A stretch of 64,000 bases of DNA, taken from the IMG/VR virus record IMGVR_UViG_3300042731_011319, positions 1 to 64,000 of that record; one strand, written 5' to 3'. The position numbers and the translations under genes were made by a program. Positions 10,105 through 30,854 of this stretch are shown here, piece by piece. The stretch's first letter is position 1. Each line of letters starts with the position of its first letter. Below the pieces are notes generated by a model, which did not search any database, was not told the DNA's origin, and worked only from the letters and a program-made list of their open reading frames with translations. The stretch comes from a virus.

Positions 10105-12789
10105 TTAAAAAATTGCCGCAACTGCTTGGACAGAATCATTAAACATGACCACTTCAGGGATCTCGGCGGTATAGTCAAGTCCAACTGATTGAAAAATGAT
10201 ATTTATATCATCGCTTCCAAGCCAGTTTGAGAAGCTTTGGCTTACATTGCTATTAACTGTCCATCCAGCATAATAATAAGCATCAACGGGTGTCGTTGAA
10301 TCTACAGATAACGATGTCCATGAATTAGATTCTGATAGTGAATCTGTAAAAAAGTATGAAGCCATTTCACTGCCATCAGAGCTGTTTATCAGGCCGCAAG
10401 GCATCCAGCCATAAACATCTGAATCGAAATAAGTATTCATAGATAATGCAACATCTATTGCCAAACTATCTGAAGAATACCCTCTTTTAACGATGAATGC
10501 ATACATGTATGCTGCAGCCACACAACTATGAGGTGCTTGAGCGGAATCAGCCGTCAAATTGTACAAATCTAGCCTGCCGGCACTTCCATTTTCAGTAATA
10601 GTAACTTCTGGCTCAAACGAAATCCAGCCATCAAACACACTATTAACACAGGGATCACTTGACCCCAATGAGCTCTCATCGGAATCTTCTTCGATTACCG
10701 TTAGATTATCTAACTCCCAAGTCGCACGACGAGTTTTAAATACATCATTCTTTAGGTCATCTGGAAAAGGATCATCGTCCGCTCCAAATAGTATAGGGAA
10801 GCCTATGCAGTTTTTGATAGTATTACCGAAAGTTTTCAGCACATCCTTGATCGTATCGGAAGTAGATACCGAATTAACAGCATTAGAAAGTGCAGTTGTA
10901 CCAGAGAGAAAATTGGTGACATTTTCACATTTTGTGCCTTTTAATTTCCAACCAGGAAATAACTGACTATTAAATACAGTATTATCCTTAAACATATTTT
11001 TTACAGATATTGCATTACTTACATCCCATCCTTTAACTGGCTGATTAAATACAGACGACTCAAACATGCCACTAAAATCAACTTCTTTTTCATTTTCAGC
11101 GAGGTTTTGGCCAAATTGTCCAGCCCATGCGGGTAGTTGTGAATCAAAAGCCGTGTTGCTTTTGAACATGTTCTTGAAAGATTTTACTTTGCCAATATTC
11201 CAGCTATTGGTAGATTCGCCAAAAGAACTACCCTCAAACATACTTTCGAAACTTTCGACATTAGAAGTATTCCAGTATTCAGTTCCTGGCTCAGCCCAAA
11301 CAGTCTGATTAAATGAAGAGGCATTACAAAACATTCCTTTCATAGTGGTTGCAGAGCCAGTTTTCCATTTACGAATTGGTTTATTGAAAGAGCTCGCACC
11401 GCGAAACATGTTCTTGAACGAATTCACATTAGAAACATCCCACTGAGCTGAAAAACCATTGTATTCTTTTGCGTTATGAAACATTCCCTCCATTTTTTGA
11501 GCCTTAGAAACATCAATTCCTCCAAGATATTGCTTGAAATCAGCATTATTTTTAAACATGTTCTTGAAATTAGTAACATTAGAAGTATTCCAGAATTCAT
11601 TGATACCTGCTCTATTGTAAACAGTACCCTCAAGGAAGCTTTCGACACTTACAGTTTGGCTAACATCCCAATGCTTAATATTAACTGCTTTATAAGCGGA
11701 GTACTCGAAGCATCCAGTCAAATCGGTTAAATTACCCCCACTGACATTATTAAGCTTAAAATGATAAACATAAGAAGAACAGCCAGACATAAATCCAAGC
11801 ATGCTTGTAATTCCATCCAAGTTCAGATTTGAAAGCACACTGCTGTACTTAAAATTAGTACATCCTGCAAACATATGGTCAATTGCTCCAGAGAAAGACT
11901 GAGTATGGCCAGCCATGTTTTCAACTCGCTGCATGCCATAATTTGCAAAATCTCCAACTCCATGCAATTTAAAATTAGTGCCCAAATTGATTCTGAAAGC
12001 TTTACGTTTATTCATTGGGTTGATACTGTTACTATTAAAAGTAAAAATATCATATGCAGATTCATCGACACTGTAGCGCTGAGTTAACATGCCGCTCCAT
12101 TCACTTAAAGCAGGTGCAATACTTGTATCAACAGAATCGACAATTTCAAACTCAGAACTGTATGTAATCCCATCGATGTCATAAAAATATTGCAAAAAGC
12201 CTGATTGTGTTTTTGTGTCTAGCTCGCCGTTAGAATAAGTTGCATCTAAATGAGAATTAGATTCAAGTCGAAAATTAACATCATTAGATGGGATACTGTA
12301 TTTTTCACCCTTAACAAGTTTGATCCCATCAGAACTACTAACCCCAATATAATCCCCACTAAACTTAAACACTAAATCAGTTTGATTTATTGACATGCTC
12401 AGATCGCCTTTTTGATTGTTTAAAAACACATTAGAGCCATATCGTGCGACAGACTGCTTGGGTAATGCCAAATAAGATTCCGTATCGGAGGCGAAGTTTT
12501 TCCAGCCGCCCGTTATTGAAACTAATTTTAAACCTGCATTACTGTGATATCTAATTGTCTGTGAAGTATTGTCCGTGTGGATAAGGTTGACTTTTTTGTC
12601 GGAAATAACAATACCATTATTACTGTTATTTGAATATGTAATATTCTGTTGTCCGCCCTCGCCCCAATTAACAGTAGCGCTAAATATGGGGTTACTGCTA
12701 GTAATCCCGGGAGTGTCTGATGCCCCAGCAATTACGAACGATACAATATCTTGGGGTGTATAATAACCTTTGAATTCTAATTGAGCCAT
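10105..12789 (-). CDS. giant BspA-type (DUF285) repeat protein, putative adhesin or tail protein
   Basis: 894 residues. About residues 230-640 contain at least ten units of the DUF285/BspA pattern: DVSNV-x-SFKNMF-x-GASSFN, repeated as W(D/N)xSNVxSFxxMFxxxxxFx. Residues 1-220 look like PKD/Ig-type beta domains; the last 200 residues are a separate Ser/Asp-rich domain with no signal anchor. BspA repeats form beta-solenoid-like surfaces used for binding host surfaces. With no signal peptide and a position next to the glycan genes, a virion adhesion fibre is more likely than a secreted protein. It has its own promoter motif and terminator. Confidence 0.75.
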   Translation of the reverse strand: MAQLEFKGYYTPQDIVSFVIAGASDTPGITSSNPIFSATVNWGEGGQQNITYSNNSNNGIVISDKKVNLIHTDNTSQTIRYHSNAGLKLVSITGGWKNFASDTESYLALPKQSVARYGSNVFLNNQKGDLSMSINQTDLVFKFSGDYIGVSSSDGIKLVKGEKYSIPSNDVNFRLESNSHLDATYSNGELDTKTQSGFLQYFYDIDGITYSSEFEIVDSVDTSIAPALSEWSGMLTQRYSVDESAYDIFTFNSNSINPMNKRKAFRINLGTNFKLHGVGDFANYGMQRVENMAGHTQSFSGAIDHMFAGCTNFKYSSVLSNLNLDGITSMLGFMSGCSSYVYHFKLNNVSGGNLTDLTGCFEYSAYKAVNIKHWDVSQTVSVESFLEGTVYNRAGINEFWNTSNVTNFKNMFKNNADFKQYLGGIDVSKAQKMEGMFHNAKEYNGFSAQWDVSNVNSFKNMFRGASSFNKPIRKWKTGSATTMKGMFCNASSFNQTVWAEPGTEYWNTSNVESFESMFEGSSFGESTNSWNIGKVKSFKNMFKSNTAFDSQLPAWAGQFGQNLAENEKEVDFSGMFESSVFNQPVKGWDVSNAISVKNMFKDNTVFNSQLFPGWKLKGTKCENVTNFLSGTTALSNAVNSVSTSDTIKDVLKTFGNTIKNCIGFPILFGADDDPFPDDLKNDVFKTRRATWELDNLTVIEEDSDESSLGSSDPCVNSVFDGWISFEPEVTITENGSAGRLDLYNLTADSAQAPHSCVAAAYMYAFIVKRGYSSDSLAIDVALSMNTYFDSDVYGWMPCGLINSSDGSEMASYFFTDSLSESNSWTSLSVDSTTPVDAYYYAGWTVNSNVSQSFSNWLGSDDINIIFQSVGLDYTAEIPEVVMFNDSVQAVAAIF

Positions 12790-12817
12790 AATGTTTGTTG
12801 TTTATTGTTTATAAATG

Positions 12818-12826
12818 CATATACAC
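12818..12826 (-). promoter_or_regulatory. late-type promoter motif upstream of the BspA gene
   Basis: Minus strand ATGTGTATATG, 32 bases before the ATG at 12789. The leader TTTATAAACAATAAACAACAAACATT is A-rich and G-poor. Spacing is longer than in most members of the set. The remaining space to 12908 holds nothing else recognisable. Confidence 0.45.
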
Positions 12827-12907
12827 ATTTTTTTTGAAAAAACATATATTTGAGAGAATAGAAATCATGAAAGCTGCAAGGGCATGTAGCAAATATTTTT
12901 ATAAAAA

Positions 12908-13537
12908 TTAAGCGGGTTTTTCGAATTTATAACCAAACCTAATGATGTCCGAGTGATATTTTTTTGCCACCATTCCGATAGTTTCTTCATCATAATATTC
13001 GCTATAATGCTTATGCTTGGTAGTATTTTGGGTAGGTAAGGCTTGATATGGAATGCCTATCTCTTGGCATGCATGCTTGTAGTCATCCGGAAGATTTTCG
13101 ACTTTACCTATAAAATTAAAATCTTCGGTTATCCATTTTAGTTGAGATGGTTCATGCATCCCCTGAAACGCGCTTTTAGTTAAAAAATCTTTAAATGATT
13201 GAGTACCTTCCTTCACTTTTAGGCAATCTTTGTAATAACCGGGAGCGCATAATTGAATTTCTTTATCGTCAGCACATTTAAGTGTATAAAAATATTGAGA
13301 AACAATTCTCGAAAAAGGATTACGGACAAAGGCAAACCTATAGTATTCATTCCAGGCCAAACCTTCCTGATTAAAATATTCCTCCATTTTATTGCCAGTG
13401 ACATGATGATAAAAATAAGATTTTCGGCCACCAACAGCTTTTACATCAGACCACCTGCATAAACGGTGACGCATGGCGGTAGTGGCATTTTTTGGTATCG
13501 ATATAAAAAGAAATTTTTTTCTGTGAGATAATACCAT
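12908..13537 (-). CDS. sulfotransferase (family 2-like), tandem copy 1
   Basis: 209 residues. PAPS 5' loop FLFISIPKNATTAM at residues 9-22; 3' segment FAFVRNPFSRIVSQYFY. The last 40 residues (KHYSEYYDEETIGMVAKKYHSDIIRFGYKF) closely match those of the next gene, so they are tandem duplicates with diverged acceptor regions. Compact size is typical for bacterial and phage family-2 carbohydrate sulfotransferases. Confidence 0.88.
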   Translation of the reverse strand: MVLSHRKKFLFISIPKNATTAMRHRLCRWSDVKAVGGRKSYFYHHVTGNKMEEYFNQEGLAWNEYYRFAFVRNPFSRIVSQYFYTLKCADDKEIQLCAPGYYKDCLKVKEGTQSFKDFLTKSAFQGMHEPSQLKWITEDFNFIGKVENLPDDYKHACQEIGIPYQALPTQNTTKHKHYSEYYDEETIGMVAKKYHSDIIRFGYKFEKPA

Positions 13538-13560
13538 TTTTATAAAGGGTTTTTTTGAAA

Positions 13561-14211
13561 TTAAGTGGGTTTTGCGAATTTATAACCAAACCTAATTATA
13601 TCTGCGCGATATTTTCGAGCAACTATTTCCATTGTTTCTTCGTCATAGTATTCGCTATAATGTCTATGGGGAGTTTGATTTTTTATTGGAAGAGGTTTTC
13701 TGGTAATTCCCAGTTTTTTACAAACTATATCGAAATCAGTTTGCAAGGTTTCGAATCTGCCGATAAAGTCGCAGTCAACTATTTGAGATGCTTGATCTGA
13801 AAACCAAATGCCATCTTCAGCGGTATGATTAACTAAATTGATAGATACAAATTCTTTAAAATTACTTGGGACCACAAAGTTCTCTGAGCATTTTACGCCA
13901 TCGTGTTGCTGCATATATTTATATATAGACACTGCTCGATCAAAAGGATTACGCACAAATGCAAACTTAAAATAAGAATCTATTAATTGTCTGTCATCCT
14001 CGCATGTGTGATTCTTTAATACTTTATAGCTTACATGATTAGGGTCATCATCGTAGTTTTCATACAAAAATTGAGGCTTTAAAGCGTCAAAAACTTTATT
14101 GAACTGATGTTCTGTGCATTCATCGGAGCATTCCAATAATGAATATAGTATAGATGTAGAGGCAGTTTTAGGGACTCGAACGAAAACAGATTGTGTATTC
14201 CAAAAAATCAT
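13561..14211 (-). CDS. sulfotransferase (family 2-like), tandem copy 2
   Basis: 216 residues. 5' loop VFVRVPKTASTSIL, 3' segment FAFVRNPFDRAVSIYKYM, C-terminal HRHYSEYYDEETMEIVARKY shared with the neighbouring copy. The middle region differs, which would change the acceptor sugar. It ends 23 bases before the next start and follows the GT10 gene by 3 bases. Confidence 0.88.
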   Translation of the reverse strand: MIFWNTQSVFVRVPKTASTSILYSLLECSDECTEHQFNKVFDALKPQFLYENYDDDPNHVSYKVLKNHTCEDDRQLIDSYFKFAFVRNPFDRAVSIYKYMQQHDGVKCSENFVVPSNFKEFVSINLVNHTAEDGIWFSDQASQIVDCDFIGRFETLQTDFDIVCKKLGITRKPLPIKNQTPHRHYSEYYDEETMEIVARKYRADIIRFGYKFAKPT

Positions 14212-14214
14212 AAT

Positions 14215-15267
14215 TTATATTAAAAAGTTAGATATAGTTTGATGCAGTTTCTTGACCCTTAATTTTATTTCAAAATCTAACTTGTCGGGCCAATTAGCAA
14301 AAAGTTTAGAAGCAATAGAATAATTATAATTTAAGATATTTAACACATCTAAGGAATTTACAGAATCCAAGCAAAATTGATTGACTTCGGACTGATTGAT
14401 CGGCTCAGCTTCGGCGATATTAATTCCAATAAAATCATGATGATTATTTGAATCGTAAAAAATAGGTATAGAGAGAGAAAGTACTGAGTCGAATATTTTT
14501 TCTGTAAGATAATTATTCTCGATTGTGTTTTCAAGTGCAAAAAGAAATTTAGCATTTTTAAAGCACCAATCTAGTTTATTTCTGTGAAAAGAATTTCCAG
14601 TATAAATAGTTTCTTCTGTCAAAGAGCCAAGTTCTTTATTTCCTCTGCCAAAAAAATCACAATTCAACTCTGGTATAGTGACAAGATAGTCTGCTAATTC
14701 ATCTTTTAATCCATTTAAGCACAAGCCTGTAGGATTCTTAGAGAAATCGAATTGATTTTGCTCAGGTGGAGTTTTGCGATAATATAATCCTGTAATATCA
14801 TATGTTTTGCTTTTGTAAATTTTATTAAAATCAATACGATTTAAAAGATTTAAGTAAAACTGATAATTTTTTAAGTAAACTTGGTCGGTAGTCAAGAAAT
14901 AAGGTATATATTTATATTCAAAAATGTCAGTAAATTTATGATTAATAACGTGGTAATGAAAATATAAGCTATCATCATCCTTATCCCTAGCAATATAATC
15001 ACCTTTATCAGATCGAGTAAAAGTAGACCAGCTATTGTCCCAAACAGGCTCTTCGCTAACCAATATAACTGGCTTATTTTGCTTTACCGATAAAAATCCA
15101 GAAAAATCTTTACGAATATCATTAATATAAGAAAATAAAATAAAATCCGCATCATTAGGACAATCGACTTCACAAAAGAACTTACTTAATTCCGCTTGGT
15201 ATGAAGCATAAGAAAATAGGCAAATTTTTGTACTATAGCCGTATTTATAATATTTAATTAAACTCAT
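14215..15267 (-). CDS. glycosyltransferase family 10-like (fucosyltransferase type)
   Basis: 350 residues. The C-terminal half carries the GT10 signature: FALENTIENNYLTEKIFDS followed by LSIPIFYDS, preceded by CDFFGRGNKE and LCLNGLKDELADYL. GT10 enzymes are GT-B alpha-1,3/4-fucosyltransferases using GDP-fucose or a related GDP-sugar. The window also contains a GDP-mannose 3,5-epimerase, which makes a GDP-galactose-type donor, so the true donor may differ. It overlaps the upstream glycosyltransferase by 14 bases. Confidence 0.8.
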   Translation of the reverse strand: MSLIKYYKYGYSTKICLFSYASYQAELSKFFCEVDCPNDADFILFSYINDIRKDFSGFLSVKQNKPVILVSEEPVWDNSWSTFTRSDKGDYIARDKDDDSLYFHYHVINHKFTDIFEYKYIPYFLTTDQVYLKNYQFYLNLLNRIDFNKIYKSKTYDITGLYYRKTPPEQNQFDFSKNPTGLCLNGLKDELADYLVTIPELNCDFFGRGNKELGSLTEETIYTGNSFHRNKLDWCFKNAKFLFALENTIENNYLTEKIFDSVLSLSIPIFYDSNNHHDFIGINIAEAEPINQSEVNQFCLDSVNSLDVLNILNYNYSIASKLFANWPDKLDFEIKLRVKKLHQTISNFLI

Positions 15268-16099
15268 GAATAGTATAAGTCTTTGCAGAATCCTGAACGA
15301 TATGCCAAGACCTTCTTTGGGAGTCAGGTCGCCAAGGGTTTAATTGAGACCATATTCTATTTCTCTGTATCTCGTAAAACAAACGAATATCAGGGCAATT
15401 TTCTGGTGGGCTCATTTTATTTAAATGCTCAACAATTTTCATGGCGTTAAATTTATCTTTGCCAGAAAGAGAAGAAAAGTCAGGATTTAACAAGTCATCC
15501 AAATCCAATAATGTTTGATTGATATAACGAGCTTCTTGGGTAGACTCTATGTGATTAAATAAATCATAATTAAAGTCTAGACCTTCGAGTTTAAGAGCTG
15601 ACAAGCGGTTGTATAAATCAGAGTCATCCCAGCCATAAGTTGTGATTCCTTCATGATAACCATTGACCCGCCAAAAATCTTCAGTCTTGCAGTAAAGTTG
15701 TCCATTTAGATGAAGTTCGTTTTCATTTCTGGCAATTTTCCAATTACCACGAAAAAAAGAAAATTCAGGTAAAATGTGAAAACTCAAAAAAGTTGGGTCA
15801 AGTACAATATCTGAGTCTAACTTTAAAATATGGTCATATTTAGCGAAAGAAATTGCCAGATTAAATGCATGACTTAAAATCCATTTTGGCTGATTATTGA
15901 CTCTCAACAATTTAATATCTTTTGATGCACAATTCCGGTGTAAATCAGAATATTTAATTGGCTCATCGGAAGACCAATCAAGCACAATGATTTCACTGAC
16001 TTCATCTAATTCATCCCACGACTTTATCGAAAGCAGAAGATTATCAGTGCGATTCATTGCACAGGTTACGAGAGAACACCCTTTCTTGAAGCTTTTCAT
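15254..16099 (-). CDS. glycosyltransferase, GT2/GT7-like (galactosyltransferase type)
   Basis: 281 residues. N-terminus CSLVTCAMNRTDNLLLSIKS is a GT2-type entry; DxD is KLDSDIVL. The C-terminal part (LYCKTEDFWRVNGYHEGIT then YGWDDSDLYNRL) is the GT7 C-terminal motif seen in beta-1,4-galactosyltransferases and chondroitin synthases. It would add a hexose or hexosamine in a glycosaminoglycan-like linkage. A late-type promoter motif lies 10 bases upstream of its ATG. Confidence 0.8.
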   Translation of the reverse strand: MKSFKKGCSLVTCAMNRTDNLLLSIKSWDELDEVSEIIVLDWSSDEPIKYSDLHRNCASKDIKLLRVNNQPKWILSHAFNLAISFAKYDHILKLDSDIVLDPTFLSFHILPEFSFFRGNWKIARNENELHLNGQLYCKTEDFWRVNGYHEGITTYGWDDSDLYNRLSALKLEGLDFNYDLFNHIESTQEARYINQTLLDLDDLLNPDFSSLSGKDKFNAMKIVEHLNKMSPPENCPDIRLFYEIQRNRIWSQLNPWRPDSQRRSWHIVQDSAKTYTIHEFN

Positions 16100-16105
16100 A
16101 AACTT

Positions 16106-16114
16106 ATTTTACAC
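16106..16114 (-). promoter_or_regulatory. late-type promoter motif for 15254..16099
   Basis: Minus strand TAGTGTAAAAT; GTGTA ends 10 bases before the ATG at 16099. It overlaps the stop codon of the upstream GT31-like gene. Confidence 0.5.
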
Positions 16115-16809
16115 TAAAATGAAGTACCACTCTCTAAAAACTTATAGGTTTCATACATGCAACTTGGCGACAAATAATGAGATGAAATTTTACCATTCAA
16201 GAGTTGTTTTTTTGCAAAATCATCAGATTCATGAGCCCAATTCAAATCTGCATTACGATCTGCAAACGGAATCCATAAACCTTCGTTTAACTGAATGTTG
16301 TCTATAATTTCAATTCCTGCATCCCTCATAGATGCAGCAACTCCAATATCCTCACCTCCTTCTTGATGTAAATAAAAATCAAGATGATTCCAAGCTTTTT
16401 GAATTGCAGATCGCGATAAAATATAACCTGACCCCCCTTGAGCATATGGTAGTCCTTTGAAATTTTTTTTCTTTCCTATATACAAATCATCTTGGGGGTT
16501 AAAATTTTTTAGGTACTCTTTGAGAAGTTCGAAATTAACAAAAGTGTCATCATCGCATTTAAATAAAAAGTCCCAATCGTGAGACAAGGACTGTTTTAAC
16601 ATTTTATAAGTTTTTTCAGGAAGCCTACTGCGACTCTCACCCAAGTCGGGAGAGCAGTTCAGGGTATTTTTCATTGATTTAGACTGAACTAAGTCACCAT
16701 AAAAAAAATATTCATGAGGGCTTTCAATACCTTTCAGCCAAGTATTTAAGCAGGCATCGGCCTGCTCTTGTGTTTCGCTGCAGGTTAATACACAAACTAA
16801 TATTTTCAA
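16114..16809 (-). CDS. glycosyltransferase family 31-like (beta-1,3-galactosyltransferase/Fringe type)
   Basis: 231 residues, starting at TTG because no ATG is available (an in-frame stop lies just upstream). CVLTCSETQEQADACLNTW, then LPEKTYKMLKQSL, the acidic FKCDDDTFVNF (DDD metal site), PYAQGGSGYILSRSA and GGEDIGVAASMRDAGIE follow the GT31 order. These enzymes form beta-1,3 linkages from UDP-sugars. No membrane anchor, unlike the eukaryotic relatives. Confidence 0.82.
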   Translation of the reverse strand: MKILVCVLTCSETQEQADACLNTWLKGIESPHEYFFYGDLVQSKSMKNTLNCSPDLGESRSRLPEKTYKMLKQSLSHDWDFLFKCDDDTFVNFELLKEYLKNFNPQDDLYIGKKKNFKGLPYAQGGSGYILSRSAIQKAWNHLDFYLHQEGGEDIGVAASMRDAGIEIIDNIQLNEGLWIPFADRNADLNWAHESDDFAKKQLLNGKISSHYLSPSCMYETYKFLESGTSF

Positions 16810-16842
16810 TTATTTTTAATTAGGCTAGAAGTATGTAAGTAA

Positions 16843-17175
16843 TTAATCCCAATTGCCTTGGGCAACATTTCGTCCGTCTAAATTACTCCAATCTACTGCA
16901 AATGGATCTTCGTCTTCGTCTTGCTCGATATGTTCGCCTTTAAATTGCTGCTGTTGATCGTCGTACAATTTCGCATGCATGCGCTGACCCATCCATAAAG
17001 ATTCTAACAATAGCGCTCGCACCGCTTCAAGATTATAACTTTCTTCTCGACTGCAACGATATGCTTGTTTTAATACATTGCATAATGTTCGTTTTTCATC
17101 AAGTGGCTTATCCATTTCTTCGCGCATTTGCTCAGAAATTTCTTTGGTAAATGGTTTTGGTTTATATTCGCTCAT
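16843..17175 (-). CDS. conserved hypothetical protein, 110 aa
   Basis: The start ATG at 17175 (MSEYKPKPFTKEISEQM) is set by a GTGTA element exactly 9 bases upstream. The core LCNVLKQAYRCSREESYNLE followed by a helix RALLLESLWMGQRMHAKLYD resembles small proteins in large marine myoviruses; the C-terminus is acidic. Function unknown. Confidence 0.6.
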   Translation of the reverse strand: MSEYKPKPFTKEISEQMREEMDKPLDEKRTLCNVLKQAYRCSREESYNLEAVRALLLESLWMGQRMHAKLYDDQQQQFKGEHIEQDEDEDPFAVDWSNLDGRNVAQGNWD

Positions 17176-17180
17176 GTTTA

Positions 17181-17189
17181 TATATACAC
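17181..17189 (-). promoter_or_regulatory. late-type promoter motif for 16843..17175
   Basis: Minus strand AAGTGTATATATAAAC then ATG: GTGTA ends 9 bases before the start codon. Confidence 0.6.
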
Positions 17190-17744
17190 TTAACCAAAAG
17201 GATATCCTTCTTTTAAATATTGATTGTATTGCTCTTCGGAGTAATAATCCCAGCCTGTTTTTGCGCAAATTTCTCGCACTAATTCAAGGAAATAAAACAC
17301 ATGTGGATGATTCTTTTGTTGCATTGTAATTTTAGAACCATGTTTTTCTATGATTGTATGAGCGGGGATATCTATATTGAATTCATTAGCTCTTTCGATC
17401 ATACCTTCTAAATATTCAGGGTGATCAGTGTCATAAAACATAGAGCTAATTGAAATTAATTCTACATTTTTATGATGTTTTTTAATTTCATATACATTAT
17501 AATTACACTTTTGAACTGAAATATGTTGAAAAATGATATAATCTGAGTCTTTTAGTCTTTTCAATGATTCATTTTCATCGAAAATTATTGGAATATCTTT
17601 ACCTTTGAAATTTTTATTTAAAGCCCAAGGATAGTCATTAAAAAAGTCGACACATATCCATTTTACATCAAAGTTTTCGTTTAACTGCTCAACATACCAT
17701 GTTAGGGCTTTTGTTTGGCAATTCCCGAATAAGGTGATTTTCAT
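17190..17744 (-). CDS. WcbI-type polysaccharide biosynthesis protein (putative acetyltransferase)
   Basis: 184 residues. The N-terminal LFGNCQTKAL is the WcbI/PF18588 signature, and QQKNHPHVFYFLELV matches its second conserved block with Asn-His-Pro. WcbI of Burkholderia binds CoA and is implicated in acetylation of capsule. In this cluster it would O-acetylate the phage-directed glycan. It lies 15 bases downstream of a glycosyltransferase. Confidence 0.75.
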   Translation of the reverse strand: MKITLFGNCQTKALTWYVEQLNENFDVKWICVDFFNDYPWALNKNFKGKDIPIIFDENESLKRLKDSDYIIFQHISVQKCNYNVYEIKKHHKNVELISISSMFYDTDHPEYLEGMIERANEFNIDIPAHTIIEKHGSKITMQQKNHPHVFYFLELVREICAKTGWDYYSEEQYNQYLKEGYPFG

Positions 17745-17758
17745 ACAGATTTAATTGC

Positions 17759-18514
17759 TTAAAAGTTTTGGGTTAATATTTTTTTTGCGGCAGCGACTCT
17801 GATTGAATCTAAACAATCTAAATGTTTATACTCAGGGAGAAATTTTAATTTAAATCTAGCAGCTGAATGAGGTATATGCCAAGCTCGAGTGGCCAGATCA
17901 GTTCCGGAATAAACTTGTATGTGTTGATTAGTAATGTCGATGTTATATTTTGAATATAAAGATTTATAATCTTTGTTGTGGTCTTGAGTAAAGTTGAAAT
18001 AAAAAAACTCTTGATCGTGATAATGGTCTGCATTGGCAATTAAATAATTCAACCTTTCTTTTGTGATGTCTACAAATGCTTGGCATAAATTTTTAAAATA
18101 TTCTGCGGTTCCTGATGCTATAGATGGGCATGTCCCATCTAAGAAGGTTAAACTAGAATCATTTAAATTCCAATCCTTTTTGCTCGATCCATTATTGAAT
18201 ACATCGTAGTCTGATACAAGAACGAATTCATTTAGGTTATTGACAGTAGAGTATGCCATCCATCTCAGATAGCAATGCAGACCATATGCACTCAAAGCTT
18301 TTCCTGTAATCTGGTGACACAAGTCTGACATCTGTTCGGATAGAGTTTTAAAAAAAGGAGAATTTTGCGCATCTTTTAAGCTTACAATGCAAGGGTCAAA
18401 TCCAGCCCTACTCCAACTTTCGCTCCAGAGATTTAAAAGCTCTTCTTGCTTGTTGAAGGTGTGAGTGTTTCCAGGTTTATTGTTTAGCCCTTCATAGTAT
18501 GTGAGTATTTTCAT
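17759..18514 (-). CDS. GT-A fold glycosyltransferase-like protein
   Basis: 251 residues. LRWMAYSTVNNLNEFVLVSDYDVF contains a DxD-type metal motif (SDYDVF) after an RWxA helix, as in small GT-A capsule transferases. Earlier WSESWSRAGFDPCIVSL and later YHDQEFFYF support this. The donor is unknown. ATGA overlap with the upstream sulfotransferase shows co-expression. Confidence 0.65.
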   Translation of the reverse strand: MKILTYYEGLNNKPGNTHTFNKQEELLNLWSESWSRAGFDPCIVSLKDAQNSPFFKTLSEQMSDLCHQITGKALSAYGLHCYLRWMAYSTVNNLNEFVLVSDYDVFNNGSSKKDWNLNDSSLTFLDGTCPSIASGTAEYFKNLCQAFVDITKERLNYLIANADHYHDQEFFYFNFTQDHNKDYKSLYSKYNIDITNQHIQVYSGTDLATRAWHIPHSAARFKLKFLPEYKHLDCLDSIRVAAAKKILTQNF

Positions 18515-19161
18515 ATAGTATATCCTTTTAATTCTATTACGCCTTTTTCTTTGAGTGATACAAGATCTATTAGCTCTTGATTATATATATCATGCATGTT
18601 TTGCGAATTAGAACTTTTGTTCCCGTGATGTAAAATTGGAGGACTTATTTCTACTTGCTCGCACAAAAAGGCAAATTCATTTGATAAATTTTCGAAACTA
18701 GCAATATGGTCTACGATAATTTGACCGTTTTGATCACAATAATATTCATCTTGGGCAGGATTGTTGATTATAATGTTTTTGAGTATAGTTTGTTCGTCAG
18801 AATTGGAAAATAATGAAACACAATATTGTCCTTGATTAATTTCTGCCGCGCCCCAAGCTATCGATTCATCTCTACGCAAAAACTTGTCGGCGTAATTTTT
18901 AAAATATTTAAAAAAGCTAAAGTATCTAGCCCATGGATTGCGAACAATAGTGAATTTAAAATAGTCGTTCCAATCGAAGTTGTGCTTGGCGAATTGTTTT
19001 TTCGCTCGAATGGCTGTATCGTGCTGATAAAAGTCTGCTTCAACAAATGGTTTGCCAACTATATCAATGTATCCTAGCGGATACAAGCTTTCGCGAAAAG
19101 AGCGTGTGCCAGTTTTTGGGATATCAATTGTTATAAATTTATGAGAATGAGAAATTAACAT
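18511..19161 (-). CDS. sulfotransferase (family 2-like)
   Basis: 216 residues. 5' loop FITIDIPKTGTRSF at residues 9-22; 3' segment FTIVRNPWARYFSFFKYF. Conserved WNDYFKF precedes the 3' segment as in the copy at 12908. It is distinct from the tandem pair at 12908/13561 in its C-terminus, so it probably has another acceptor. It overlaps both neighbours (4 and 7 bases). Confidence 0.86.
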   Translation of the reverse strand: MLISHSHKFITIDIPKTGTRSFRESLYPLGYIDIVGKPFVEADFYQHDTAIRAKKQFAKHNFDWNDYFKFTIVRNPWARYFSFFKYFKNYADKFLRRDESIAWGAAEINQGQYCVSLFSNSDEQTILKNIIINNPAQDEYYCDQNGQIIVDHIASFENLSNEFAFLCEQVEISPPILHHGNKSSNSQNMHDIYNQELIDLVSLKEKGVIELKGYTI

Positions 19162-19727
19162 GATACATTAAATAATAATTCTGATTGTAATTTGTTTAAC
19201 AGCGATTCAAATAAATTATTGTTACAATAATCAAAATTATAATTTGGTTGTGAGGATTTGTTGGCAATCTTCCACCATTGTGCATGAGATTTAGTGTGTT
19301 TTGTTATAGGTCGAAAACTCGGACATAGGGATATATTAAATGCGTCAGAAATTTTTGTTAATAAATGACGGCCTTGATCTTTTTGTAAAACATCTAGCCG
19401 ACCGCAAATAAAATTAAATCCTTGTAAAATCTCGAGGTTAGATAATGCTCTGTTAGAGTACTTATGATAGATCGCAAGATCTTCGATGTTTTGATAGTAT
19501 CCATAATTTATGACTTTCATTCTTGGGAGCCAGCTTGTGTAGGTTCTTATTGGATATATATAAAGGAAATTTTTTTTTGGTTGAGAAGTGGAAAAGTATT
19601 CATGCTTATTATCGTCAATACATTGAATATCTTGAGAAAATATATTTTCGTTTATTAAAGAATGTATCCACCTAGTTCCAGAATGTATGTCTCCAATTAC
19701 CTGAATAGTTGCAATTGGATTGTTCAT
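19155..19727 (-). CDS. diverged sulfotransferase-fold protein
   Basis: 190 residues. VIGDIHSGTRWIHSLI keeps the Ser-Gly-Thr P-loop of sulfotransferases, though the usual PKT/PKN is replaced by IHSGT. YIYPIRTYTSWLPRM may stand for the 3' segment (R..xxSW). It may bind PAPS with an unusual geometry or be an inactive partner. It sits between a glycosyltransferase and a canonical sulfotransferase. Confidence 0.6.
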   Translation of the reverse strand: MNNPIATIQVIGDIHSGTRWIHSLINENIFSQDIQCIDDNKHEYFSTSQPKKNFLYIYPIRTYTSWLPRMKVINYGYYQNIEDLAIYHKYSNRALSNLEILQGFNFICGRLDVLQKDQGRHLLTKISDAFNISLCPSFRPITKHTKSHAQWWKIANKSSQPNYNFDYCNNNLFESLLNKLQSELLFNVSC

Positions 19728-20470
19728 TAAATTAATGAGTTAAATTTTTCAACTTCTATGTATCTTGGATTGTTTGTTTTTGAGCTGTATTGCGTGCACG
19801 GAAGAATATCGTTTGCTCGCTTCCACTCTTTGGCACTTTCGATGACATCAATCCAACAAAAAGATTCTCTAATAAATTTATAAGCATATGCACCAAGTAA
19901 ATTGTATTCACTGATTGTCTCAAGAGTATTTAAGTAATCTATAATGTCGCCTTTTAAATTTAAAATGTATTCTCTTAATTTTGGAAATAGATCAGTGTGA
20001 TATACGAGCGGCATTCTTCTCATGAAATTATAATCAGATTCATACTCTAATGTTTGATCTGTCCACGGTTTAAAAACAGTGTTCGGCATTTGTGACCACT
20101 TTTGTATGCCAAGGATTGGTTTATTGCCATTAAAATAAACTGAAGGATCGTGGTGGTCTGTGAAAATATTATCACTATCAACGTGACAAATGTAATCCGC
20201 GTCGCTCGACACATATTGTTCAGAAAATAGTTTGATGTATTGTTGTCTTATATAACCTTTTTTGATTTTTTTTGCTTCTCGATTAATGAAGTATTTTTGA
20301 TCTATTGATTCAAGATATTGTTGTGTTTGAATGCAATCGTTTTCATGATCATCTATTACTACAACATTTTCATAATAACCTTTGCAATATTTTTCAATAG
20401 ACTCCAGGTTATATTTTAAATACTCGAGATCTTTATCGTAGGTTACGGTTATGATTGCGGTTTTCAACAC
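19727..20470 (-). CDS. glycosyltransferase-like protein (DUF6492-like)
   Basis: 247 residues, GTG start. ITVTYDKDLEYLKYNLESIE opens a GT-A fold; HVDSDNIFTDHHDPS holds the metal-binding DxD. The later block YNFMRRMPLVYHTDLF and the C-terminal EWKRANDILPCTQYS resemble DUF6492 glycosyltransferases of capsule clusters. Its start overlaps the end of a 34-residue frame. Confidence 0.68.
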   Translation of the reverse strand: MLKTAIITVTYDKDLEYLKYNLESIEKYCKGYYENVVVIDDHENDCIQTQQYLESIDQKYFINREAKKIKKGYIRQQYIKLFSEQYVSSDADYICHVDSDNIFTDHHDPSVYFNGNKPILGIQKWSQMPNTVFKPWTDQTLEYESDYNFMRRMPLVYHTDLFPKLREYILNLKGDIIDYLNTLETISEYNLLGAYAYKFIRESFCWIDVIESAKEWKRANDILPCTQYSSKTNNPRYIEVEKFNSLI

Positions 20471-20568
20471 TTTAAAAAATATCGATTATATCTATCATCA
20501 AAGGCTATATCAATATATGTACCTTGTGAGGAGTTTCCTAGTAATTTATGTATTTCCTCTGGTTTCAT
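20464..20568 (-). CDS. possible tiny protein, 34 aa
   Basis: ATG start (MKPEEIHKLLGNSSQGTYID) 8 bases after the sulfotransferase stop; TGA inside the next start region. It fills the only gap between two coupled genes. Weak case on its own; no family recognised. Confidence 0.4.
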   Translation of the reverse strand: MKPEEIHKLLGNSSQGTYIDIAFDDRYNRYFLKC

Positions 20569-20575
20569 GTTACAT

Positions 20576-21475
20576 TTATTTACAATATCTCTCCCATAAT
20601 TTTCTGTCCCAATATGTACGATCTAGAAACGTTTGTTGAATACTTGGATCTAGGTCTTCGAATTTTATTTTTATTTTTTTGGAAGTTTTGTTCTTATTAA
20701 TATGAGTGACTACAACATCGGACTCAATATCTGATTGAAGGATACCATAAGCACCGTGAAATACATTATTAATTAATTCATCTACTCCGCTAATATCGGA
20801 TATTCTAAAATACTGAAGGTATTGATTCGCTAATGTAAAATGTCTGGGCTCAATCACTTGAGAATCTTGCATGTCAAGCAAATGCCTTATAATCCAACTA
20901 TCTTCTAACTCGCTAGATTCAAGATATTCAAGTAAATTGGCAGAAACAATCGAATCGTGAGTCGGTTCATGCTTACTACTGTTACCCTTTATGTAATGAT
21001 ATAGCGACATAGACCTTGCAAAAGGATCCCGCAGAACTGTAAAGTTTAATTCATAGTCTCTTTTTGAAGCATGTTTAATCTTTTCTACAGCATCTCTTTG
21101 TATTGATGCTCCGGGAATAGTAGGATCAACACTAATCGAAAAAACTTCGACATCTCCATTATTAATAGAATCGATAAAAGATTCCAAGTCAACATAATCA
21201 GTTACTTCATCACTGAATTTATGTTTTTTAAAATTGTTATTTATTGTTGCAACATCTGTAGGGGTATGAATGCAGCAAGTCAATTGCTTTCCTTCTTTTA
21301 ATAAAACAATAGATCTCCTTATTCTTTTGGAAGTCCATCCTGGTATTTGATGCTTGCCTAAATATAAGTTGTATTTTCTGCATAACATCATCATCCAACT
21401 TAAAACATAAGTTCCTGCATTCTTGGCTATATGATAAAAAACAGGAAGATGTTTAGGATCTTTAACTATACTCAT
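20576..21475 (-). CDS. sulfotransferase, heparan-sulfate-type P-loop enzyme
   Basis: 299 residues from the ATG at 21475, the start that lies 13 bases after a GTGTA element. 5' loop PVFYHIAKNAGTYVLSW; 3' segment FTVLRDPFARSMSLYHYIKG. It is longer than the other copies, with a 60-residue insertion between the loops and EDSWIIRHLL in the C-terminal half, closer in plan to uronyl 2-O-sulfotransferases. A cytoplasmic enzyme with no membrane anchor. Confidence 0.82.
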   Translation of the reverse strand: MSIVKDPKHLPVFYHIAKNAGTYVLSWMMMLCRKYNLYLGKHQIPGWTSKRIRRSIVLLKEGKQLTCCIHTPTDVATINNNFKKHKFSDEVTDYVDLESFIDSINNGDVEVFSISVDPTIPGASIQRDAVEKIKHASKRDYELNFTVLRDPFARSMSLYHYIKGNSSKHEPTHDSIVSANLLEYLESSELEDSWIIRHLLDMQDSQVIEPRHFTLANQYLQYFRISDISGVDELINNVFHGAYGILQSDIESDVVVTHINKNKTSKKIKIKFEDLDPSIQQTFLDRTYWDRKLWERYCK

Positions 21476-21484
21476 GACCTTATA

Positions 21485-21493
21485 TAGGTACAC
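21485..21493 (-). promoter_or_regulatory. late-type promoter motif for 20576..21475
   Basis: Minus strand AAGTGTACCTATATAAGGTC then ATG; GTGTA ends 13 bases before the start. Confidence 0.5.
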
Positions 21494-21515
21494 TTTATTA
21501 AAAAATAAATTCTAT

Positions 21516-22349
21516 TTAAGATAAAAATCTATTTTTTTGATGTAAAATTATTAAATCTCTATTTTTTTGGCAAATATAACTTTCTTTTAGCTTTCTGTCT
21601 GCACCCATGGACATATTAGAAATTAATTTTATATCTTTATACCCAGGTTTGTATTTATTTATGTTTTCTTCTGAAGATTCGATAGTATAGTAAATCGCAA
21701 TGTCGTAATTAACAAAATGATCATGAACACCTTCTTTCACTAGTTGTTTCAACTTGGATAAAGATTTATCAATCAATTCTTTAAGTAAATCACAGTTTTT
21801 ATAAATAGCCACCCCATTTAAATGATCTTTCCATTGGCAATTTTCCGGCAGATCGACAATGCCCTCATAATGACTTCCGGCGATCAAGAAATCTTCTTCG
21901 GTGCAATATTTATGCAGTCGATCAAACCAGCGATACTTAACAGGACGAGTATCAGATTCTAAGACCAAGAAATTTTCATAATTATTCTGAAAAAGAAAGT
22001 CTAAGCCTTGAAAAAAAGAGTTATTGGGCCCAGAAGATAGCCCTAAGATAGGAAAGTCATGCTCTTCGTATAATTCATAAGAATGGTTGGTTCGAACATA
22101 AATATTTTCTTGCTCGCTAAGATCCAAAGAATGTATATGGATTTTATTTACATATTTATAAGATTCATACTTTAATAAATCTTCATAATCTTTAGGGTCG
22201 CCCTGATCAAAAATAAAAAATAAATCAAATAGATATTGTGTCGAACCCCCTAGTCCAAAATAATATTTTAAAGAATGATCCAGGTCGCCTTTTTGGTATT
22301 CTTTTTGAGAGCATAAGAATGCTGTAGCTAATTTATTTGTATACTCCAT
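21516..22349 (-). CDS. GT-A-like glycosyltransferase
   Basis: 277 residues from the ATG at 22349 (MEYTNKLATAFL); an extension would need TTG. FLVLESDTRPVKYRWFDRL provides an acidic metal site, and AGSHYEGI plus HLNGVAIYKNCDLL resemble the acceptor region of cellular GT-A enzymes. YDIAIYYTIESS near the end is conserved in some capsule genes. Donor and linkage unknown. Confidence 0.6.
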   Translation of the reverse strand: MEYTNKLATAFLCSQKEYQKGDLDHSLKYYFGLGGSTQYLFDLFFIFDQGDPKDYEDLLKYESYKYVNKIHIHSLDLSEQENIYVRTNHSYELYEEHDFPILGLSSGPNNSFFQGLDFLFQNNYENFLVLESDTRPVKYRWFDRLHKYCTEEDFLIAGSHYEGIVDLPENCQWKDHLNGVAIYKNCDLLKELIDKSLSKLKQLVKEGVHDHFVNYDIAIYYTIESSEENINKYKPGYKDIKLISNMSMGADRKLKESYICQKNRDLIILHQKNRFLS

Positions 22350-22415
22350 ATAGTTAAAATTATATATCAATAAATAATATATATTATAATATATAAAGAA
22401 CTTAATCTCTATTAA

Positions 22416-22481
22416 TTACCACTTATATTTTTCCCAAATACAAAAAGTATATAAAACTGCTAATAATAATATTGTTGTCAT
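22416..22481 (-). CDS. tiny membrane peptide, 21 aa
   Basis: The ATG overlaps the TGA of the pyrophosphatase gene. The whole peptide is one hydrophobic segment (MTTILLLAVLYTFCIW) followed by EKYKW. It lies in the 120-base gap between the pyrophosphatase and the next gene and has the same design as the peptides at 176 and 33546. Evidence is positional and compositional only. Confidence 0.4.
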   Translation of the reverse strand: MTTILLLAVLYTFCIWEKYKW

Positions 22482-22984
22482 TTTACGATTCTGTCTACTA
22501 TGATTTGATGTGCGAATTTTTTGTCATGCCAGCCGTGTACTTTAACTTTATCACCTGACATAGATAAATCTTTGTAATGAGCAAAGAAGTTTTTTGAAAT
22601 CTGAAGAAAGCTCTCTTCTAGGTCTTTGATGTTAGAATATTGTCTGGTATAAAAATTTGGAACACCGACTAGCTTGTAATCCTTCTCTCCCTCGTCGTCC
22701 ATATCTAACACCCCAAGAATTTTGGTTTCCACAACTGTAGCTCGCTTGATTGGTTCAGGGCTGATAACTAAGATATCAAGGGGATCGCCATCTTCACATA
22801 AAGTGCCAGGAACAAACCCATAACTAGCTGGATAAACCATAGCAGAGTTTAAGCATCGATCATACATAAAGACACCAAGCTTCCCATCATATTCATATTT
22901 ATTTTTAGATCCTTCTTCGATCTCGATCACCGCATTAACAACTTGAGGCGATCTTTCATGTATTGGTAAGTGGTATAAGTTCAT
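22478..22984 (-). CDS. ppa: inorganic pyrophosphatase, family I
   Basis: 168 residues, full length for bacterial PPase. Active-site blocks: EIEEGSKNKYEYD, YPASYGFVPGTLCEDGDPLDIL (the DGDPLD metal loop) and DMDDEGEKDYKLVGV. It hydrolyses PPi to phosphate. In this phage it could pull PPi-releasing steps: DNA synthesis, sugar-nucleotide formation and sulfate activation. It is coupled (4-base overlap) to the nucleotidyltransferase gene, which itself releases PPi. Confidence 0.93.
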   Translation of the reverse strand: MNLYHLPIHERSPQVVNAVIEIEEGSKNKYEYDGKLGVFMYDRCLNSAMVYPASYGFVPGTLCEDGDPLDILVISPEPIKRATVVETKILGVLDMDDEGEKDYKLVGVPNFYTRQYSNIKDLEESFLQISKNFFAHYKDLSMSGDKVKVHGWHDKKFAHQIIVDRIVK

Positions 22985-23379
22985 TTTATTCCAGTCAAAT
23001 CAGAAGAAGAGCGAATTTTATCACCAAGTCCATCAATAACTTGTGTTTCGTTTTCTTTGCAGATTTTGTATTCAGGTATTTCTCCATTGCTGCGGTCGCC
23101 CCCATTGGCAAAAACATCAGGTTTAATTAAATCAAGAGTCTTGCATACAGTTTTGTCGTCATCGATAGACATTACAGCCTCATCAACACCTTTAATTTGA
23201 GATACAATTTCTAGACGATCATCTTCACACATAAAAGATTTTCCTTTTTTTAAAACAGCTTGTTTGTCGTTATTGACAATAACAATTAAATAATCACCAA
23301 GTGATTTTGCCATTTTAATATATTCCAAGTGACCAATATGGATTGGGTCAAAGTAACCACTAATTGCAATTTTTTTCAT
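22981..23379 (-). CDS. cytidylyltransferase-like nucleotidyltransferase (RfaE/TagD type)
   Basis: 132 residues from MKKIAISGYFDPIHIGHLEY (ATG at 23379, ATGA-coupled to the upstream gene). GYFDPIHIGH holds the HxGH signature; GDYLIVIVNND and the CEDDRLEIVSQIKGVDEAV block match HldE C-terminal and glycerol-3-phosphate cytidylyltransferases. KIRSSSDL near the end is the SxT/SxR motif in variant form. It activates a sugar- or glycerol-phosphate to a nucleotide derivative. Together with the PPase this looks like a two-gene activation unit. Confidence 0.85.
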   Translation of the reverse strand: MKKIAISGYFDPIHIGHLEYIKMAKSLGDYLIVIVNNDKQAVLKKGKSFMCEDDRLEIVSQIKGVDEAVMSIDDDKTVCKTLDLIKPDVFANGGDRSNGEIPEYKICKENETQVIDGLGDKIRSSSDLTGIK

Positions 23380-23753
23380 GTAAGATTTTTTTGTATTTGT
23401 CTGAAAATGTAAGCCATACACTCGCTATCTGTAAGCTTTAGAGCTCGATATATTTCTAAATCTATAACTTGCTCTATATCTAAATCATTAAAAGGTATTA
23501 ATTCATCTTTATCTTCCTCGTACAAGCAGACATCGATAATTTTATTTGTGCCAATCGGTTGGGTGACATATATTTTATATATATCCATGTAACTTTTAGG
23601 CAGCTCTAATAATCGTTTATATATTTTACTGAAATTAATAGTTAATTCAATAATTGCATGATCTGATAAGTGCTCGTCTTTATAATATTCTCTATAAAGA
23701 TGATTAAACATTGATTTAAATGTAACCTTTTGTGCTAATTCTCTAAGTGTCAT
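23376..23753 (-). CDS. conserved hypothetical protein, 125 aa (DUF6557-like)
   Basis: The opening TLRELAQKVTFKSMFNHLYREYY and a later IDVCLYEEDKDELIPFNDLDI follow a small family I associate with DUF6557, of unknown function. ATGA overlap with the nucleotidyltransferase. Helical N-terminus, beta strands in the middle. The family assignment is from memory. Confidence 0.5.
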   Translation of the reverse strand: MTLRELAQKVTFKSMFNHLYREYYKDEHLSDHAIIELTINFSKIYKRLLELPKSYMDIYKIYVTQPIGTNKIIDVCLYEEDKDELIPFNDLDIEQVIDLEIYRALKLTDSECMAYIFRQIQKNLT

Positions 23754-28115: not shown

Positions 28116-28120
28116 ATAAA

Positions 28121-28156
28121 TAAAAAAAGGGGGACGACTAATTATAGTCGCCCCCC
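28121..28156 (-). terminator. rho-independent terminator of the porin-like operon
   Basis: Minus strand: GGGGGGCGACTA-TAAT-TAGTCGTCCCCC followed by seven Ts. The stem is about 11 bp with one bulge. It ends transcripts coming from 28183..28443 and upstream, while the -10 box of the next promoter lies in its loop. Confidence 0.85.
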
Positions 28157-28169
28157 TTCGGGAAGTCAA
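28141..28169 (-). promoter_or_regulatory. early promoter overlapping a terminator
   Basis: Minus strand: TTGACT (28169-28164), 17 bp, TATAAT (28146-28141), with the ATG of the methyltransferase 25 bases on. The -10 hexamer forms the hairpin loop and its flank, and the transcript begins inside the descending stem, so it cannot fold the hairpin itself. Confidence 0.75.
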
Positions 28170-30796: not shown

Positions 30797-30806
30797 ATTA
30801 AAGACA

Positions 30807-30835
30807 ATTTTACCATGCATTATGTATATAGTCAA
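30807..30835 (-). promoter_or_regulatory. early-type sigma70 promoter of the dut operon
   Basis: Minus strand: TTGACT (30835-30830), 17 bp, TAAAAT (30812-30807), 10 bases, ATG at 30796. Confidence 0.75.
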
Positions 30836-30854
30836 GTTTTTTTTAAAAAAAAAA

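What the first reader, a model, noticed from the sequence alone, without database searches (positions are those of the whole stretch)
10105..23421. Glycan assembly island with glycosaminoglycan-like enzyme mix
Within 12 kb there are GT10, GT2/GT7, GT31, WcbI-type, DUF6492-like and two further GT-A proteins interleaved with five sulfotransferase-fold genes; GT92, GT47-exostosin and GDP-mannose 3,5-epimerase lie at 60-63 kb. Exostosin, GT31, GT7 and several sulfotransferases are the classes that build sulfated glycosaminoglycans in animals. Inference: the phage builds a complex sulfated, acetylated and methylated glycan. Several genes are co-translated, so they probably act in one pathway.
Basis: partly seen in the sequence, partly recalled or inferred. 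Interest (0 to 1): 0.8.

Follow-up and report, generated by a model that had tools for sequence, protein, structure and literature searches.

The report
Phage sulfated-glycan cassettes beside cysQ gene
A large uncultured tailed phage carries ten sulfotransferase genes, some twenty sugar-transferase genes and an enzyme that clears the by-product of sulfation, in gene blocks that related phages swap, so it very probably builds its own sulfated sugar chains, although where it puts them is unknown.

Summary
The 12.9-22.4 kb block holds four PF03567 sulfotransferases (one borderline) plus GT10, GT2/7, GT31 and DUF6492-type genes. It is one of two glycan islands in a 109.7-kb tailed-phage record. 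The second (60-93 kb) runs past the window and adds five sulfotransferases, 12 GT-family genes, a GDP-mannose 3,5-epimerase and GDP-fucose-type enzymes. A CysQ-type PAP phosphatase, the partner expected for PAPS-dependent sulfation, lies beside island 1. In some relatives cysQ and a pyrophosphatase gene are nearly adjacent; in others, different sulfotransferase/GT cassettes sit there. Cassettes moved recently (4-fold-site identity 0.74 against 0.51 elsewhere for island 1; 0.83 against 0.43 for another block). Island proteins show no membrane segments and no polymerase or flippase was found, pointing to stepwise cytosolic assembly. The animal-glycosaminoglycan reading is not supported as stated: resemblance to heparan-sulfate sulfotransferases is weak, sugar-nucleotide genes point to L-fucose and L-galactose, and the uronate-forming dehydrogenase of relatives is absent here. 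Virion versus host-surface destination is undecided. Phage glycan islands are known; one with many sulfotransferases and its own PAP phosphatase is a new variant.

The parts
261..617 (-). mannose-6-phosphate isomerase-type cupin (MannoseP_isomer)
   Evidence: Pfam PF01050 109 bits; matches only the C-terminal part of GMP_PMI
4042..4572 (-). methyltransferase (Methyltransf_11)
   Evidence: 91% identical in G001 only
4597..5358 (-). sulfotransferase, Sulfotransfer_2
   Evidence: PF03567 23.4 bits, cut-off 22; phage ST profile E 2e-27
8960..9742 (-). CysQ-type 3'(2'),5'-bisphosphate nucleotidase (PAP phosphatase)
   Evidence: TIGR01331 227.4 bits, cut-off 228.8; PDB 3b8b CysQ E 3e-56; EE, DPxDGT and WDT motifs invariant in 10 phages
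10105..12789 (-). DUF285/BspA-like repeat protein; shared only with G001, like island 1; candidate surface or acceptor protein
   Evidence: PF03382 230 bits
12908..13537 (-). sulfotransferase, Sulfotransfer_2; 5'-PSB PKNATTA, 3'-PB RNPFSRIVSQY
   Evidence: PF03567 61.9 bits; motifs
13561..14211 (-). sulfotransferase, Sulfotransfer_2; PKTASTS and RNPFDRAVSIY
   Evidence: PF03567 65.1 bits
14215..15267 (-). GT10 (fucosyltransferase-family) glycosyltransferase
   Evidence: PF00852 28.5 bits, cut-off 23.9
15254..16099 (-). GT2 / GT7C-type glycosyltransferase
   Evidence: PF02709 and PF00535 above cut-off; LDSD motif
16114..16809 (-). GT31/Fringe-type glycosyltransferase
   Evidence: PF02434 44 bits; CDDD motif
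17190..17744 (-). WcbI-like protein (sub-threshold)
   Evidence: PF18588 23.6 bits, cut-off 29.2; 63% homologue in the G006 cassette
17759..18514 (-). possible GT-A protein, no family assignment (DYD motif)
   Evidence: no reliable Pfam hit
18511..19161 (-). sulfotransferase, Sulfotransfer_2; PKTGTRS and RNPWARYFSFF
   Evidence: PF03567 35.1 bits
   Evidence: no Pfam hit
19727..20470 (-). DUF6492 / GT2-like protein
   Evidence: PF20102 26.4 bits, cut-off 22.9
20576..21493 (-). divergent sulfotransferase, RDPFARSMSLY motif
   Evidence: PF03567 borderline; phage ST profile E 1.4e-8
21516..22370 (-). unassigned, possible glycosyltransferase
   Evidence: no Pfam hit; 83% identical in G001
22478..22984 (-). 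inorganic pyrophosphatase; far side of the cassette junction
   Evidence: PF00719 160 bits; near cysQ in relatives
22981..23421 (-). nucleotidyltransferase, HldE-C / glycerol-3-phosphate cytidylyltransferase-like
   Evidence: TIGR02199 73 bits, below cut-off; PF01467 61.9 bits
60307..61299 (-). GDP-mannose 3,5-epimerase
   Evidence: PDB 8sg0 E 1.4e-94 full length; C118, Y150, K154, K193, R285 invariant in 8 phages
61296..62078 (-). Glyco_tranf_2_4/GT92-type glycosyltransferase
   Evidence: PF13704 40.7 bits
62071..62901 (-). GT47 exostosin-type glycosyltransferase, short partial match
   Evidence: PF03016 35.2 bits, cut-off 33.4
62901..63479 (-). methyltransferase (Methyltransf_24)
   Evidence: 53.4 bits
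63483..64000 (-). sulfotransferase, runs off the window end (record 63483-64070)
   Evidence: PF03567 60.6 bits

Best explanation
A large tailed phage encodes a cytosolic system that builds and sulfates fucose-containing oligosaccharides. Shown by sequence: ten PF03567 sulfotransferases, most with PAPS-binding motifs; at least 17 GT-family genes, among them three families that hold fucosyltransferases (GT10, GT11, GT23/NodZ); enzymes of the types that make GDP-L-fucose and GDP-L-galactose; a CysQ-type PAP phosphatase; conservation and purifying selection. Inferred: the host supplies PAPS, soluble transferases add sugars one at a time to a cytosolic acceptor, sulfotransferases add sulfate, CysQ removes the PAP that would otherwise inhibit them, and pyrophosphatase pulls nucleotide-sugar formation forward. 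The glycan most likely decorates a virion surface protein (fibre, DUF285-type protein or capsid decoration). A conserved core in island 2 sets the basic pathway; exchangeable cassettes, with the cysQ-pyrophosphatase junction as one hotspot, vary the structure between phages, as expected for a surface under diversifying pressure. Destination and biological role are inference.
For: PF03567 hits and profile; R59, P61, S67 invariant in 57 phage sulfotransferases; AlphaFold model of one at pLDDT 90 whose top 23 PDB matches are all sulfotransferases; CysQ identity and motifs; GDP-mannose 3,5-epimerase; GMD- and fucose-synthase-like genes, GT11, NodZ; conserved island-2 core; cassette junction comparison; recent exchange; dN/dS 0.02-0.25 where not saturated; 0 of 46 island proteins with a predicted membrane segment; phage cysQ found in a clade of relatives and almost absent from cultured phages.
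Against: No acceptor identified, and the islands are not next to recognised virion genes in this record. No PAPS synthesis genes established: no PAPS_reduct/CysD-type hit in 21 records, and the APS-kinase-like fusion at 30783-31697 is a generic phage family also present in records without sulfotransferases. CysQ presence does not significantly track sulfotransferases across 50 related records (one-sided Fisher p 0.07, records not independent); many sulfotransferase-bearing relatives lack it, though many are fragments. GMD- and fucose-synthase-like genes score below their equivalog cut-offs. No expression or glycan data.
Confidence: 0.55

Rival explanations
1. The same enzymes remodel the host's own envelope glycan (LPS or capsule) during infection, adding fucose and sulfate to host sugars to block superinfection or to keep progeny from adsorbing to debris.
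For: GT25, GT61, GT90, GT9 and Caps_synth are families of LPS/capsule synthesis; exchangeable single-step transferases fit serotype-conversion-like logic.
Against: No membrane-bound polymerase, flippase or serotype-conversion-type acetyltransferase among 46 island proteins, all predicted soluble; export would rely wholly on the host.
Confidence: 0.27
2. The islands glycosylate phage DNA, as in T4-like and other hypermodified phages, to resist host restriction.
For: Phage glycosyltransferases often modify DNA (summarised in PMC12619734); a 2OG-Fe(II) oxygenase (49807) and a cytosine methylase (26967) are present.
Against: No thymidylate-synthase-family gene, the family of pyrimidine hydroxymethylases, in 13 records; sulfotransferases and GDP-sugar enzymes are not needed; cassette diversity between near relatives exceeds what a DNA modification needs.
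Confidence: 0.06
3. A genuine glycosaminoglycan-like polysaccharide is polymerised.
For: The sulfotransferase profile's best PDB matches include heparan-sulfate 6-O- and 2-O-sulfotransferases; partial GT7/GT31/GT47/GT64 matches; UDP-glucose dehydrogenase-like gene in relatives.
Against: Weak E-values; no two-domain co-polymerase; dehydrogenase missing in this record; GDP-fucose/GDP-L-galactose enzymes and fucosyltransferase families dominate the assignable chemistry.
Confidence: 0.06
4. A heterogeneous accumulation of mobile cargo genes without a joint pathway.
For: Cassettes are swapped between phages; several genes have no assignable family.
Against: Conserved core at 70-95% identity in up to four relatives, purifying selection, and functional fit of cysQ with sulfotransferases.
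Confidence: 0.06

Closest known systems
Glycan/nucleotide-sugar gene clusters of large cyanophages (S-SSM7, S-SCSM1)
   Same: Clusters of glycosyltransferases and nucleotide-sugar epimerases including a GME-like gene (42% identical to this one), methyltransferases, and in S-SCSM1 a NodZ fucosyltransferase and mannose-6-phosphate isomerase
   Different: No sulfotransferase or CysQ annotated in the stretches read; different phages; fewer transferases. S-SSM7 has an annotated UDP-glucose dehydrogenase, this record none
Moraphages (aquatic jumbo phages, PMC12619734)
   Same: Large aquatic metagenomic phages with several core glycosyltransferases
   Different: The paper's text does not mention sulfotransferases or fucose; predicted Bacteroidota hosts; relation to this lineage not tested here
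Phages with single sulfotransferases (Stenotrophomonas phage vB_SmaS-DLP_6; OM43-phage-related metagenomic genomes, PMC10580990)
   Same: DLP_6 carries one related sulfotransferase and the same kinase/nucleotidyltransferase fusion
   Different: One match each, no glycan island in the 12.5-kb DLP_6 stretch read; the OM43-related genes are Sulfotransfer_3; PMC10580990 says the function of phage sulfotransferases remains unclear
Virion-glycosylating mycobacteriophages (Freeman et al. 2023, as cited in PMC12619734)
   Same: Glycans on virion proteins; the model for the destination proposed here
   Different: Glycans at C-termini of capsid and tail-tube subunits; no sulfation mentioned in the summary read; original paper not held
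Animal glycosaminoglycan assembly (EXT, chondroitin synthases, HS/CS sulfotransferases)
   Same: Shared broad families: PF03567 sulfotransferases, GT7, GT31, GT47
   Different: Short single-domain soluble enzymes, no co-polymerase seen, fucose/L-galactose chemistry

Membership tests
PF03567 PAPS-dependent sulfotransferase | profile match above the curated cut-off | tested here: met
   9 of 10 genes above 22 bits outright, the tenth only with neighbouring pieces
PF03567 PAPS-dependent sulfotransferase | 5'-PSB (PKxxxT/S) and 3'-PB (RxPxxRxxS) motifs | tested here: met
   R59, P61, S67 invariant in 57 phage sulfotransferases; in this record the 3'-PB pattern fits 7 of 10 genes; 4597 and 78294 keep RNP, 68709 did not match
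PF03567 PAPS-dependent sulfotransferase | sulfotransferase fold | tested here: met
   one gene modelled, pLDDT 90; top 23 PDB matches are sulfotransferases, but TM-scores are 0.37-0.54 and only one match is below E 0.001
CysQ (3'(2'),5'-bisphosphate nucleotidase) | equivalog profile TIGR01331 | tested here: inconclusive
   227.4 bits against cut-off 228.8; five close orthologues exceed it
CysQ (3'(2'),5'-bisphosphate nucleotidase) | metal-binding motifs EE, DPxDGT, WD | tested here: met
   invariant in 10 phage sequences
CysQ (3'(2'),5'-bisphosphate nucleotidase) | PAP hydrolysis | not testable with these tools
   needs an enzyme assay
GDP-mannose 3,5-epimerase | full-length similarity and catalytic Cys, Tyr/Lys, Lys, Arg | tested here: met
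   E 1.4e-94 to 8sg0; residues invariant; residue roles from general knowledge of Arabidopsis GME
GDP-L-fucose pathway (GMD + fucose synthase) | equivalog profile cut-offs TIGR01472 and NF047922 | tested here: not met
   best family hits, but 313 vs 415 and 442 vs 500 bits; hence called GMD-like and fucose-synthase-like
Animal glycosaminoglycan biosynthesis | hexuronate donor made by UDP-glucose dehydrogenase | tested here: not met
   absent from this record; above cut-off in 10 of 21 records tested; host could supply it and the record is a fragment
Animal glycosaminoglycan biosynthesis | dual-domain co-polymerase (GT47+GT64 or GT31+GT7) | tested here: not met
   only single short domains found
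Phage DNA glucosylation system | pyrimidine hydroxymethylase of the thymidylate-synthase family | tested here: not met
   no PF00303 hit in 13 records, several of them fragments
Virion-glycosylating phage | glycan on virion proteins | not testable with these tools
   needs virion glycoproteomics

The most novel reading that the evidence does not exclude
A phage lineage carries a modular, exchangeable system that coats its virions with fucose- and L-galactose-containing sulfated glycans resembling algal sulfated polysaccharides, clears PAP itself with CysQ, and diversifies the coat by swapping cassettes at a cysQ-pyrophosphatase hotspot, perhaps to reach or to hide among hosts that feed on such polysaccharides (a Verrucomicrobiota host is a lead).
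Probability: 0.2. Interest if true: 0.9.

Novelty: new variant of a known kind. Interest (0 to 1): 0.68.

Why it matters
[quoted passage not shown] Here ten of them sit in one phage record (eleven in two relatives) with fucosyltransferase-family genes, GDP-fucose/GDP-L-galactose-type enzymes and a PAP phosphatase, which gives a concrete, testable role: assembly of a sulfated glycan. If the glycan is on the virion it would be, to my knowledge, the first sulfated phage coat and a bacterial-virus counterpart of the glycan-making giant viruses.

Tried and rejected
APS kinase: 30783-31697 first looked like PAPS synthesis (PF01583 50 bits), but only part of the domain matches, it is fused to an NMN-adenylyltransferase-like domain, and it occurs in records with no sulfotransferase; dropped as evidence. 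'No uronate chemistry' was dropped as a general argument because relatives encode a UDP-glucose dehydrogenase-like protein. The conserved gene at record 79775-80575 looked like a P-loop sulfotransferase; AlphaFold gave pLDDT 65 and no convincing match, so it is not counted. CysQ-sulfotransferase co-occurrence was not significant. Host from the cysQ gene: nearest cellular sequences only 39-49% identical, from mixed phyla, and the search pattern biases the list. PDB phmmer with a single sulfotransferase found nothing. Several paper searches gave nothing relevant.
Full report
What is there. The window is the first 64 kb of a 109,722-base IMG/VR virus record. It is tailed-phage DNA: DnaB-type helicase, DNA polymerase III alpha, RecA-like and PD-(D/E)XK genes lie in the window, and the 194-kb relative G002 carries a terminase (distant matches in cultured phages) and a 4557-residue reading frame of tape-measure size. 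I recognised no capsid, portal or terminase gene in the record itself, so it is probably a fragment of a larger genome. The sampled environment is not known to me.

The reported block is real. Pfam confirms GT10, GT2/GT7C, Fringe/GT31, DUF6492 and three clear plus one borderline PF03567 sulfotransferases between 12.9 and 21.5 kb. The WcbI and GT92 labels are below cut-off and the fifth sulfotransferase is unconfirmed. A second island starts at 60.3 kb and continues outside the window to about 93 kb. It holds sulfotransferases at record 63483, 68709, 77649, 78294 and 80565, and GT2_4/GT92-type, GT47, GT11, GT61, two Caps_synth, GT2/7C, GT90, Nucleotid_trans (GT77-type), GT25, GT31 and NodZ/GT23 genes, then an epimerase, a GDP-fucose-synthase-like gene and a GDP-mannose-dehydratase-like gene. 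GT4 and GT9 genes follow at 94-100 kb. Counting only hits above Pfam cut-offs, the record has 17 GT-family genes plus DUF6492 and YibB, and ten PF03567 genes, one of which (4597) lies outside both islands.

Sulfation logic. The gene at 8960-9742 is a CysQ-type phosphatase: TIGR01331 227.4 bits (cut-off 228.8), PDB 3b8b at 3e-56, and all metal-binding motifs invariant in ten phage copies. CysQ hydrolyses PAP, the by-product of PAPS-dependent sulfotransferases (general knowledge), so it fits the sulfotransferases encoded here. In the cultured-phage collection its matches are few, below 60% identity, and include long records named after bacteria, which look like bacterial DNA. Fifty-seven phage sulfotransferases share invariant R59, P61 and S67 of the 3'-phosphate-binding motif, and a confident model of one of them matches sulfotransferases in all top 23 PDB hits, at modest TM-scores. 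PAPS itself probably comes from the host: no CysD/CysH-type gene was found in 21 records, and the APS-kinase-like fusion is a generic phage gene.

Sugar logic. The epimerase at 60307 is a GDP-mannose 3,5-epimerase by full-length similarity and catalytic residues; this enzyme yields GDP-L-galactose in plants (general knowledge). With GMD- and fucose-synthase-like genes and GT10, GT11 and NodZ-type genes, the assignable chemistry is L-fucose and L-galactose rather than hexosamine-uronate. Relatives additionally encode a short UDP-glucose dehydrogenase-like protein beside the orthologue of the 90342 epimerase; that site is empty in this record.

Evolution. Comparison with six relatives shows a conserved island-2 core (the 60307 epimerase 88-95% identical in four relatives; 74753, 77649, 78891, 79775, 80565, 81244, 82092, 83018, 90342 and 91259 at 70-95%) with variable genes between. 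Island 1 is shared only with G001. In G003, G005 and G014 cysQ and the pyrophosphatase gene are separated by at most a short frame, and in G002 by one nucleotidyltransferase gene and a short frame. In G000/G001, G004 and G009 different sulfotransferase/GT cassettes occupy this junction, and in G006 another one lies beside cysQ, with the pyrophosphatase end not in the stretch read. In the more distant G013 the two genes are 23 genes apart. Four-fold-site identity is higher in island 1 than elsewhere between G000 and G001 (0.74 vs 0.51, Mann-Whitney p 3e-4) and in the 64-68.7 kb block between G000 and G002 (0.83 vs 0.43, p 6e-7; first three genes 0.95-0.97). This is what recent cassette exchange predicts. 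dN/dS is 0.02-0.25 where synonymous sites are not saturated. Across 50 records, 33 carry PF03567 genes (up to 11 each) and 10 carry cysQ, nine of them with PF03567 genes.

Mechanism and destination. None of 46 island proteins has a strongly hydrophobic 19-residue segment, so assembly is most likely stepwise in the cytosol. A virion protein is the simplest acceptor because virions assemble there. The DUF285 protein next to island 1, found like island 1 only in G001 among the relatives, is a candidate, but this is inference. Host-envelope modification remains a serious rival; DNA glycosylation is unlikely.

Host. A DUF1501 protein conserved in six relatives (not found in this record) is 47-55% identical to proteins in six Verrucomicrobiota genomes, against 39% or less in the Bacteroidota genomes tested, and had no match in two Planctomycetota genomes. 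Only 26 genomes were tested, chosen by cysQ similarity, so Verrucomicrobiota is a lead only. Marine bacteria of that superphylum carry very many sulfatase genes (abstract of PMC6388578).

Known or new. Large cyanophages have glycan clusters with GME-like and NodZ genes but no annotated sulfotransferase in the stretches read. Single phage sulfotransferases are known, with function stated as unclear (PMC10580990). In 50,697 phage records three sulfotransferase queries matched only DLP_6 and two uncultured huge-phage records. I found no paper describing a phage glycan island with many sulfotransferases, within an open-licence library and nine searches. I therefore call this a new variant of a known kind.

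Noticed in passing
window 30783-31697 (+): P-loop kinase (APS-kinase-like) fused to an NMN-adenylyltransferase-like domain; widespread in virus contigs and in Stenotrophomonas, Xanthomonas and Clavibacter phages; true start probably at 30891. Substrate unknown.
   Followed up: partly
L003 17858-19993 (record about 100858-103350, -): RCC1-like repeats fused to an FGE-sulfatase domain, a possible receptor-binding tip protein; no reverse transcriptase was noticed nearby.
   Followed up: partly
L004 347-6472 (record 103347-109472, -): 2041-residue protein with RCC1 and divergent InlB B-repeats, a likely surface or adhesion protein.
   Followed up: partly
G001 66243, G002 59806, G003 51343, G005 108443, G013 10489, G032 58513: DUF1501 protein with a twin-arginine-like start, conserved in relatives but not found in G000; closest to Verrucomicrobiota paralogues among the genomes tested, a host clue.
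   Followed up: partly
L002 9411-11162 (record 72411-74162, -): HATPase_c_3 ATPase-fold protein with an acidic stretch inside the second glycan island, conserved in three relatives.
   Followed up: no
G001 103088-103942; site empty between record 90217 and 90342 of G000: UDP-glucose dehydrogenase-like gene present in relatives at a site that is empty in this record.
   Followed up: partly
window 48989-50397 (-): A 2OG-Fe(II) oxygenase gene (49807) and a neighbour of unknown family (48989), without homologues in the six relatives compared; possible hydroxylation of residues that could carry glycans.
   Followed up: no
window 26967-28169 (-): C5 cytosine DNA methylase, shared with G001 and G005 only among the six relatives.
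   Followed up: no
Six Verrucomicrobiota genomes hold 5 to 88 DUF1501 matches each but only 0-2 PF03567 sulfotransferases.
   Followed up: no
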